Source: Ureibacillus acetophenoni (GTDB taxonomy: Bacteria > Bacillota > Bacilli > Bacillales_A > Planococcaceae). Taken from it: DNA of 64,000 nt. Position 1 is the stretch's first letter, and every line of letters starts with the position of its first letter. Position numbers and translations under genes: made by a program. Of this stretch, positions 46,302 through 48,865 are shown one piece after another. The notes beneath the pieces were generated by a model. It was not told where the DNA came from. It saw nothing but the letters and a program-made list of their open reading frames with translations, and did not search any database. The stretch is from the NCBI RefSeq assembly GCF_900220965.1, contig NZ_OBQC01000002.1:461176-525175 (forward strand), written 5' to 3'.

Positions 46302-46916
46302 TTGAAGAAAAAAGACATGCATGCATATACATACGCATATGAATCCATTAGAGATCAAATCTTAAATGGAGATTTTGAACCACATGTAAAGTTAACCGAA
46401 GAAATGCTTGCAGAAAAATTAGGAATTAGTCGAACACCAATTCGTTCTGCAATTGCAAAACTCGAACAAGAAGGTTTAATTCGAAACAAAAGAATATTTA
46501 TACCTACCGAGAATGATATGCGACATATTTTCCAAGTACGCATGTTAATTGAAGGGTTTGCTGCAAAATATTGTTCAAGTTCCATAACTGAAGATGCATT
46601 AAATCGTTTGAAAGAATGTGTTGAAATTGGATTTAACGGAACAATTGAAGATATTATGCAAGCGAATCATGCATTTCACCAAATCATTGTACAGGAAACA
46701 AAAAATCCTATGATGATTGATATTATTGACAAAATGCAGTCGATTATATATTTATTTAGAAAAACAGTAGTTTGGCAAAAAAGACCTCATTTAATAGATG
46801 AACACGCAAACATTGTCAATGCAATTGAGGATAAGAATGGACAACTTGCACAAGATTTAATGGTTGAACATCTAAAAAAAGATTTAGAGTTTAGTATAAG
46901 TAGAATTAAATATTAA
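46302..46916 (+). CDS. GntR-family (FCD) transcriptional regulator
   Basis: A 204-aa regulator with a winged helix (about 10-70, MLAEKLGISRTPIRSAIAKL) and an FCD ligand domain (about 80-200) showing the metal/ligand residues in RMLIEGFAA, ANHAFHQIIVQ and DEHANIVNAIE. FCD regulators respond to hydroxy acids or sugar acids. The start is TTG at 46302 with AGGAG nine bases upstream. Divergent from the GntP permease gene, its likely target. Confidence 0.88.
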   Translation: MKKKDMHAYTYAYESIRDQILNGDFEPHVKLTEEMLAEKLGISRTPIRSAIAKLEQEGLIRNKRIFIPTENDMRHIFQVRMLIEGFAAKYCSSSITEDALNRLKECVEIGFNGTIEDIMQANHAFHQIIVQETKNPMMIDIIDKMQSIIYLFRKTVVWQKRPHLIDEHANIVNAIEDKNGQLAQDLMVEHLKKDLEFSISRIKY

Positions 46917-46928
46917 CCCTTTTAACTT

Positions 46929-46962
46929 AAAAGGCGACTCAAAAAATTGAGTCGCCTTTTTA
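46929..46962 (+). terminator. Terminator of the GntR-type gene
   Basis: Fourteen-base perfect arms AAAAGGCGACTCAA and TTGAGTCGCCTTTT with a four-base loop, T run following. Confidence 0.9.
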
Positions 46963-46989
46963 AAATCAAATTCGCCTTGGAGAATTTGC

Positions 46990-47120
46990 GCGCCCAGATT
47001 TTATCGAGCTTAGGCTAACAGGATGTTAGTCACTTAGACGTTGCCACAGGACGTGGCGCTCTTAGTCTAAGTTCATTTATTAAACCATTAAAAATCTGTG
47101 GCATCCGCCGGAGGCAACCT
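46990..47120. repeat. Structured multi-stem intergenic element
   Basis: A 130-base GC-richer block between a terminator and the tyrS end. Nested pairing: outer stem CAGATTTT/AAAATCTG (46995-47002, 47091-47098); hairpin CTAAC-AGGAT-GTTAG (47015-47029); stem ACTTAGAC/GTCTAAGT (47032-47039, 47065-47072) enclosing GCCAC-AGGAC-GTGGC (47043-47057); then a small GC hairpin at 47101-47115. I have an impression of similar interspersed blocks in Lysinibacillus-type genomes but cannot verify it. It has no coding frame. Orientation is unknown. Confidence 0.6.
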
Positions 47121-47195
47121 TCATTCAGCAAGGATATCCCTCACCGTATGGTAATCTACATACAATTAAAAATCATAATTTATAGAAATGCGACA

Positions 47196-48518
<1,323 letters not shown>

Positions 48519-48595: not shown

Positions 48596-48800
48596 TAAAA
48601 AAGCCCCACATACAAATGAATCATTTGCATGCAGGGACGTTTAAATAATTTTAACGCGGTACCACCCGGCTTGAAGAATACTTTTATATATCCTTCCACT
48701 CGTAAATGTCTTATCGCGACATATTCGTCAAGCTCCAAGAACGTAATTCATATTCTCACTATGACTAGCTTCCACTAACCGCTAGCTCTCTTTACAGGGA
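48596..48800 (-). ncRNA. T-box riboswitch upstream of tyrS
   Basis: The minus strand carries the T-box sequence CGGGTGGTACCGCG (48655-48668), followed by a terminator hairpin (48597-48639; arms GTCCCTGCATGCAAATG and CATTTGTATGTGGGGC, then T6). Upstream lies a Stem I region with a TAC triplet at 48743-48745 that could be the tyrosine specifier codon. Uncharged tRNA-Tyr would pair with it and prevent termination, switching on tyrS. Confidence 0.92.
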
Positions 48801-48865
48801 ATGAAAATACTACTTCAATCTTTTCAACACTTGAAAAAAAATATTATAATGATTGTTATTTTACT

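What the first reader, a model, noticed from the sequence alone, without database searches (positions are those of the whole stretch)
46990..47120. 130-nt intergenic element with nested stems and two AGGA-loop hairpins
The block folds by eye into a closed multibranch structure: an eight-base outer stem, then a hairpin CTAAC-AGGAT-GTTAG, then an eight-base stem enclosing GCCAC-AGGAC-GTGGC, and a further GC hairpin outside. Both hairpins share the pattern AC-AGGAY-GU, which is close to the GGA-loop signature bound by CsrA/RsmA proteins and could equally pair with anti-Shine-Dalgarno sequence. It is richer in G and C than its surroundings and sits after a terminator and before the tyrS end. It may be a dispersed repeat, a small RNA or a decoy for an RNA-binding protein; function is inferred.
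Basis: partly seen in the sequence, partly recalled or inferred. Interest (0 to 1): 0.7.

Follow-up and report, generated by a model that had tools for sequence, protein, structure and literature searches.

The report
Mobile hairpin repeat behind tyrS
The structured block is a known candidate RNA called Bacillaceae-1, read from the other strand, sitting inside a larger repeat that inserted behind a tRNA-synthetase gene; its copies behave more like a mobile DNA hairpin than like a protein-binding RNA.

Summary
On the minus strand, 47015-47081 is Rfam RF01690, Bacillaceae-1 (81.7 bits, cut-off 35), a family whose function I found stated nowhere. The core lies inside a larger palindromic repeat. 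The composite (about 46964-47210) is a DNA insertion between the tyrS stop codon and terminator: it is missing from 20 of 20 tyrS loci of other genomes of the genus, and it adds four codons to tyrS. This genome has 11 copies; relatives have up to at least 150, often nested in repeats, with filled and near-empty forms in one genome. Stems covary strongly, but mismatches do not favour G-U: 49 G-U against 73 A-C in 192 copies, against 108:5 in tRNA stems and 48:7 in terminator-like hairpins. This points to DNA hairpins rather than an RNA of either strand. CsrA binding is weakly supported: GGA stays in both loops of 90 of 192 copies. No mobiliser was found.

The parts
46964..47210 (-). Composite mosaic repeat (host repeat with Bacillaceae-1 core); boundaries set by eye, uncertain by a few bases
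   Evidence: Absent from 20 tyrS loci of the genus; same host repeat at other places in this genome, mostly without the core
47015..47081 (-). Bacillaceae-1 core (RF01690), two hairpins with RUCCU loops on this strand
   Evidence: cmscan 81.7 bits, E 1.5e-13 (alignment)
47043..47057 (-). Core hairpin GCCAC-GTCCT-GTGGC on the minus strand
47032..47072 (-). Core outer stem of 8 pairs, enclosing that hairpin
47015..47029 (-). Core hairpin CTAAC-ATCCT-GTTAG on the minus strand
46995..47098 (-). Host-repeat stem CAGATTTT/AAAATCTG that encloses the core
   Evidence: the same stem encloses a small hairpin in empty copies such as L016, L018, L025
47082..47210 (-). Left part of host repeat (CCATTCAGCA ... 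TGCTGAATGAAGG, then GCCTCCGGCGGATGCCACAGATTTT)
   Evidence: Repeated in own genome
46964..47014 (-). Right part of host repeat (CCTAAGCTCGATAAAATCTGGGCGC ... GGCGAATTTGATT)
   Evidence: Repeated in own genome
47196..48515 (-). tyrS reading frame (longest frame; the protein likely starts near 48476). Its last four codons and stop (SIQQ*) come from the insertion
   Evidence: ORF; Pfam; relatives end within two residues after MVKF, MVKY or MLKF without repeat sequence
46929..46960 (.). Perfect hairpin with T tail on both strands, a likely bidirectional terminator of gntR (+) and tyrS (-)
   Evidence: Sequence; similar hairpin right behind tyrS in L318 and L320; the consensus scan did not list it

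Best explanation
The block is a Bacillaceae-1 (RF01690) module on the minus strand, carried in the apex of a larger mosaic extragenic palindromic repeat. Shown: the composite was inserted as DNA between the tyrS stop codon and the likely tyrS terminator in the lineage of this genome. Shown: the module is multicopy, nested at different points in several different repeats, and its stems keep Watson-Crick complementarity without the G-U preference that RNA stems show. Inferred: the hairpins matter as single-stranded DNA (recognition by an unknown mobilising enzyme, perhaps on the lagging-strand template) or are kept perfect by template switching between arms, so the copies are a non-autonomous mobile element of the REP/BOX sort rather than an RNA gene or CsrA decoy. 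Inferred: in this locus it is merely co-transcribed as tyrS 3' UTR in the RUCCU sense.
For: RF01690 hit. Eleven copies in the own genome; with model R1, 115 and 119 matches in two relatives and 150, the number of candidates scored, in Rummeliibacillus suwonensis. Filled and empty host repeats in the own genome. In tiles of G090 48 of 54 and of G119 31 of 34 copies have a repeated flank, and 28 and 18 have a counterpart in which both flanks lie within 45 bases of each other. Presence or absence in 23S-5S spacers. No element in 20 of 20 other tyrS loci of the genus. Abutting empty site of another host copy behind secG. Covariation in 14 of 17 pairs but G-U:A-C = 49:73 over 192 of 224 aligned copies, against 108:5 in 105 of 109 tRNAs and 48:7 in terminator-like hairpins, and 39:35 in a plain hairpin of the host repeat. 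In G090 64 of 85 copies follow the fork; sense to genes 42:12 beside leading-strand genes but 2:5 beside lagging-strand genes (Fisher p 0.015).
Against: Rfam files it as an sRNA gene, and Weinberg 2010 marks it Y under RNA (Table 1 passage). Unpaired residues (CUAA, CG, AACG, the loops) are highly conserved, so something probably reads them. Two copies lie inside rRNA operons on the rRNA strand. The fork share of copies (64 of 85) equals that of genes (1291 of 1734), and only 7 copies lie between lagging-strand genes. Degenerate copies would show strand symmetry even if a master copy acted as RNA. No mobiliser found: Y1 transposase is absent from the high-copy genomes G090 and G119 (by elimination from the listing) and no candidate gene family recurs beside copies. 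No plasmid or phage match. Some counterparts counted as near-empty hold a core remnant (that of L285).
Confidence: 0.66

Rival explanations
1. The + strand (AGGAY loops) is an RNA that binds CsrA and sequesters it, as the first reader suggests and as PMC4333381 proposed in 2014.
For: Two AC-AGGAY-GU hairpins; the reverse complement of RF01690 matches a CsrA-site model; the genome encodes CsrA; RF01690 is more frequent in genomes with csrA, 140 of 179, than without, 6 of 21 (one csrA-less genome inferred by elimination); A-C cells, which are G-U on this strand, slightly outnumber G-U (73:49, p 0.037); the + strand folds better here.
Against: Only 90 of 192 well-aligned copies keep GGA in both loops, and in 60 of 192 the second loop is ATCGT or GTCGT, which reads ACGAY on this strand. 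Six genomes without csrA carry the family, G131 with 19 and G133 with 24 matches, 24 being the number scored. No promoter-like site, and a terminator-like hairpin lies between gntR and the element. The csrA association is not corrected for kinship: 7 of the 21 csrA-less genomes are of one genus.
Confidence: 0.12
2. The minus strand is a structured RNA acting in cis or trans through its RUCCU loops, for example by pairing with AGGA of Shine-Dalgarno sequences, or acting in rRNA processing.
For: Rfam strand; conserved loops; here it is tyrS 3' UTR; copies in two 23S-5S spacers lie on the rRNA strand; copies lie sense 41, antisense 19 between co-directional genes in tiles; host repeats lie sense 56, antisense 15.
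Against: No G-U preference on this strand (49:73). In the named, more distant set the orientation between co-directional genes is 18 sense to 20 antisense. Sporadic in rRNA operons: 1 of 30 5S loci hit with R1, and 1 of 11 own 5S genes has a copy beside it, one of the 11 lying at a contig edge where it cannot be judged.
Confidence: 0.15
3. Inert repeat: the perfect stems are produced by template switching between arms during replication, and nothing recognises the element.
For: No G-U preference together with strong Watson-Crick covariation; the host repeat behaves alike.
Against: Unpaired bases are conserved across genera, from Halobacillus and Lentibacillus to Sporosarcina, and the composite has entered a new site in this lineage.
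Confidence: 0.15

Closest known systems
Bacillaceae-1 RNA, Rfam RF01690 (Weinberg 2010, PMC2864571, passages seen)
   Same: Core structure, loops and conserved unpaired bases; 81.7 bits
   Different: Here shown nested in a mosaic repeat, as an insertion specific to this lineage, with stem mismatches that lack a G-U preference; Rfam lists it as an sRNA gene
REP / RAYT palindromic repeats (PMC3733652; abstract parts and passages seen)
   Same: Short, high-copy, extragenic, hairpin-forming, inserted next to genes; CGTC REPs lack a dedicated transposase according to that abstract
   Different: No constant GTAG or CGTC tag at the hairpin foot in alignment A1 (by eye); Y1 transposase absent from two high-copy genomes
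MITEs such as bcr1 of the Bacillus cereus group (named in PMC3733652 passages)
   Same: Non-coding, repeated, inserted next to genes at non-conserved sites
   Different: No terminal inverted repeats spanning the element and no clear target-site duplication at the two sites examined
CsrB/RsmZ-type CsrA-sequestering sRNAs
   Same: GGA in apical loops on the + strand
   Different: Two sites only, GGA lost in one or both loops of 102 of 192 copies; no evidence for transcription of that strand here
BOX elements of Streptococcus pneumoniae (recalled)
   Same: Modular mosaic repeat with exchangeable parts
   Different: Sequences not compared; resemblance from memory only

Membership tests
Bacillaceae-1 RF01690 | Covariance-model score above the curated cut-off | tested here: met
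   81.7 bits against 35
Bacillaceae-1 RF01690 | Two hairpins whose loops read RUCCU (description recalled; visible in the Rfam consensus) | tested here: met
   GTCCT and ATCCT on the minus strand
Bacillaceae-1 RF01690 | Acts as an RNA (transcribed, RNA-type pair changes) | tested here: inconclusive
   Covariation met; G-U preference not met; transcription not testable here
CsrA-sequestering sRNA | GGA in hairpin loops, kept in homologues | tested here: not met
   Present in this copy, but in both loops of only 93 of 193 or 90 of 192 copies
CsrA-sequestering sRNA | CsrA encoded in the same genome | tested here: met
   PF02599 E 3.2e-20 in G000; but 6 csrA-less genomes carry the family
CsrA-sequestering sRNA | Transcript of the GGA strand and binding of CsrA | not testable with these tools
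   Only indirect: no promoter-like site on either strand at 46850-47300
REP / RAYT element | GTAG or CGTC tag at the foot of the hairpin | tested here: not met
   No GTAG in the A1 consensus; CGTC occurs in the first loop and, in some rows only, behind that hairpin (by eye)
REP / RAYT element | Y1 transposase (RAYT) in genomes with many copies | tested here: not met
   G090 and G119 with over 100 matches have none, by elimination from the listing; the own genome has one
MITE | Terminal inverted repeats and target-site duplication | tested here: not met
   Filled and empty sites at secG and tyrS, by eye; only two sites examined
Non-autonomous mobile DNA repeat (general) | Copies present or absent at orthologous sites, empty sites, multicopy | tested here: met

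The most novel reading that the evidence does not exclude
Bacillaceae-1 is not an RNA gene: it is a minimal mobile DNA hairpin module, maintained and spread as single-stranded DNA on the lagging-strand template by an unidentified enzyme, able to insert into the stems of other palindromic repeats and to build mosaic elements in Bacillales genomes.
Probability: 0.4. Interest if true: 0.68.

Novelty: new variant of a known kind. Interest (0 to 1): 0.52.

Why it matters
Bacillaceae-1 has been listed as a structured RNA since 2010 with no function named in the passages I saw, and its strand was in doubt; a CsrA role rested on the reverse complement. The G-U against A-C comparison gives a simple test of strand and of RNA status, and suggests that the covariation that supported an RNA may have arisen at DNA level. 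If right, an abundant class of mobile hairpins in Bacillales has been filed as an sRNA, other repeat-like candidate RNAs deserve the same test, and an unknown mobilising activity remains to be found.

Tried and rejected
RAYT/Y1 transposase as mobiliser: rejected as a general explanation, absent from G090 and G119. A dedicated gene beside copies: 810 neighbour ORFs of 196 copies were clustered; the 15 largest clusters printed looked, by eye, like frames inside the repeats or unrelated host genes. For the 29 copies L040-L068 strand was ignored in that test, and L058 lies at a contig edge so that its place is wrong there. Plasmid or phage carriage: no match for the window element. rRNA operons as the usual home: rejected, sporadic. 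Promoter or terminator in the element: none by consensus scan, although the hairpin at 46929-46960 is plain to see. Gene orientation as proof of strand: biased in tiles, not in the more distant set, so not used alone. A B. subtilis 190-bp repeat was a recalled lead; the paper search gave nothing relevant. Bhal-1 of Bacillus halodurans (74 bp, 36 copies; PMC2267715, passages) may be the same family; not tested. [quoted passage not shown] from memory, its abstract reports that in B. subtilis either the motif or its reverse complement is expressed, depending on the copy. I have not read it.

Limits of the counts. A1 is made of top matches. Rows with more than 4 imperfect pairs of 17 or more than 2 gaps were dropped: kept 37 of 37, 49 of 54, 11 of 14, 73 of 88 and 22 of 31; the outermost pair was left out. 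Besides G-U and A-C, 64 other mismatches and 24 gaps were seen against 2862 Watson-Crick cells. The copies are aligned to the Rfam-strand structure, which if anything favours G-U of that strand. Searches over 200 genomes used stricter filters and scored 24 candidates a genome. The fork direction in G090 was set from 5S positions and agrees with GC skew. Gene calls are long ORFs, not annotation. For G103, counted by hand from the 37 chromosome rows listed, with the terminus assumed at 1.85 Mb, 23 of 37 follow the fork.

Full report
Observation. The + strand of 46970-47140 folds better than 199 of 200 shuffles and the - strand better than 190 of 200; a shorter minus-strand piece is better than 183 of 200.

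Identity. Rfam places 47015-47081 on the minus strand in RF01690, Bacillaceae-1, at 81.7 bits against a cut-off of 35. In 2010 the motif was tabulated as Y for RNA and n for cis-regulatory (PMC2864571, Table 1 passage). In 2014 its reverse complement was matched to the CsrA-binding motif, with the note that the discoverers were not confident of the strand (PMC4333381, passages). Eight copies are reported in B. subtilis (PMC8208703, passage).

Surroundings. gntR (46302-46916, +; GntR and FCD domains) and tyrS (47196-48515, -), the latter behind a T-box leader (48630-48836, -), converge on the element. A perfect hairpin at 46929-46960 can serve as terminator for both. Of 22 genomes searched in the genus, including the own one, 21 have tyrS. 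The 20 other tyrS loci end without the repeat; neither the core model nor blastn with the 247-bp element finds anything in those 20 loci of about 4.2 kb, while both find the own copy. In L318 and L320 the terminator hairpin follows the stop codon closely. In the window about 247 bp intervene, and TyrS gains the residues SIQQ from the insertion. So the composite is a DNA insertion, and its minus strand is tyrS 3' UTR. The + strand lies behind the hairpin that follows gntR, and no promoter-like site was found on either strand at 46850-47300.

Anatomy. A DNA search of the own genome gives 28 matches, some to the core alone. The others resolve into a host repeat (left stem AACTTCATTCAG...CTGAATGAAGTT, then GCCTCCGGCGGATGCCACAGATTTT, a small hairpin, AAAATCTGGGCGC and a terminal hairpin) that mostly lacks the core. 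By eye, L016, L018, L019, L024, L025, L028, L031, L035 and L038 are empty; L012 (the window), L013 and L014 carry Bacillaceae-1 in place of one arm of the small hairpin; L037 carries a degenerate insert; L030 is a right-hand piece only. In relatives the core also sits at a second slot of related repeats (before GCCTCCGGCGG) and, judged by shared flanks, in several other repeats. In G119 both slots can be filled at once, about 103 bp apart. In tiles of G090, 48 of 54 copies and in G119 31 of 34 have at least one repeated flank; 28 and 18 have a counterpart in which both flanks lie within 45 bases of each other. Of the printed examples, the counterpart of L285 still holds part of a core, so these numbers are not all truly empty sites.

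rRNA spacers. Two 23S-5S spacers, L011 in the own genome and L216 in G160, carry a variant with six-base loops on the rRNA strand; several other spacers of the genus are empty. R1 found one copy among the 30 5S loci L187-L216.

Empty site of the host repeat. Behind secG (PF03840; L016) the sister genome G180 has two abutting matches that skip about 176 bases of query. By eye the two sequences show no clear target-site duplication.

Stems. In 37 copies 14 of 17 pairs show double changes, 96.8% of cells pair, and 0 of 500 shuffles reach the covariation score. The controls behave as RNA should: tRNA acceptor and T stems 108:5, terminator-like hairpins with one imperfect pair 48:7. A plain hairpin of the host repeat gives 39:35. 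The module thus resembles the DNA repeat, not the RNAs. A fair objection is that many copies may be dead; but the 37 high-scoring copies of A1 show 2 G-U and 4 A-C against 579 Watson-Crick cells.

Orientation. In G090, 64 of 85 copies point with the fork. Beside leading-strand genes they are sense 42:12, beside lagging-strand genes 2:5, and between convergent or divergent genes they follow the fork 12:5 (Fisher p 0.015 for the difference in sense share; for the host repeat 46:12 against 3:4, p 0.056). This leans towards replication over transcription as the cause, but numbers are small and the overall share equals that of genes. Between co-directional genes, 41 sense to 19 antisense in tiles and 18 to 20 in the more distant set; the host repeat 56 to 15.

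CsrA. The genome has csrA, as do 179 of 200 genomes drawn from the order (own one included); 146 of 200 have RF01690. Six genomes have RF01690 without csrA (G016, G024, G056, G131, G133, G137), two of them with 19 or more matches. The association (140 of 179 against 6 of 21, p 8e-6) is not corrected for kinship. GGA is kept in both loops in 93 of 193 copies, 90 of 192 well-aligned ones.

Mobiliser. Y1 transposases occur in 130 of 200 genomes, the own one included, but not in G090 or G119 (by elimination from the listing). No candidate gene recurs beside copies. No plasmid or phage match.

Mechanism. Best reading: a non-autonomous DNA repeat whose hairpins are recognised or corrected as single strands, moved by something unidentified, and tolerated behind stop codons where it is co-transcribed. 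The insertion and nesting are shown; single-strand recognition and the link to replication are inferred.

Literature check. Of 13 papers that hold the term Bacillaceae-1, I saw passages of seven, one of them only a reference-list entry; none of those passages calls it mobile. Two further searches for repeats in these genera gave nothing that I judged relevant from the listing. The dedicated 2022 paper was not available, so the claim that mobility is unreported is not made.

Noticed in passing
window 48630-48836 (-): T-box leader upstream of tyrS, 105.9 bits.
   Followed up: no
L007 1292-1611 (-): A Bacillaceae-1 copy lies within a BsrG-type sRNA/toxin match, just before a small ORF; in L065 a copy lies within what looks by eye like a similar small ORF.
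   Followed up: partly
L011 1501-1568 and L216 1427-1494: Variant of the core with six-base loops in 23S-5S rRNA spacers, next to 5S.
   Followed up: partly
L281 15345-15536, L295 5380-5571, L296 8552-8743: Host repeats of G119 with two cores about 103 bp apart.
   Followed up: no
Second loop of the core in many copies: Loop alternates between ATCCT or GTCCT and ATCGT or GTCGT (60 of 192 have the latter), while the first loop is mostly GTCCT.
   Followed up: partly
own-genome loci L013 and L018: Upstream reading frames seem by eye to run into the left end of the host repeat, as in tyrS, suggesting C-terminal extensions by insertion.
   Followed up: no
L213 1072-1378 (-): Group II intron domains beside a 5S gene in G078.
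   Followed up: no
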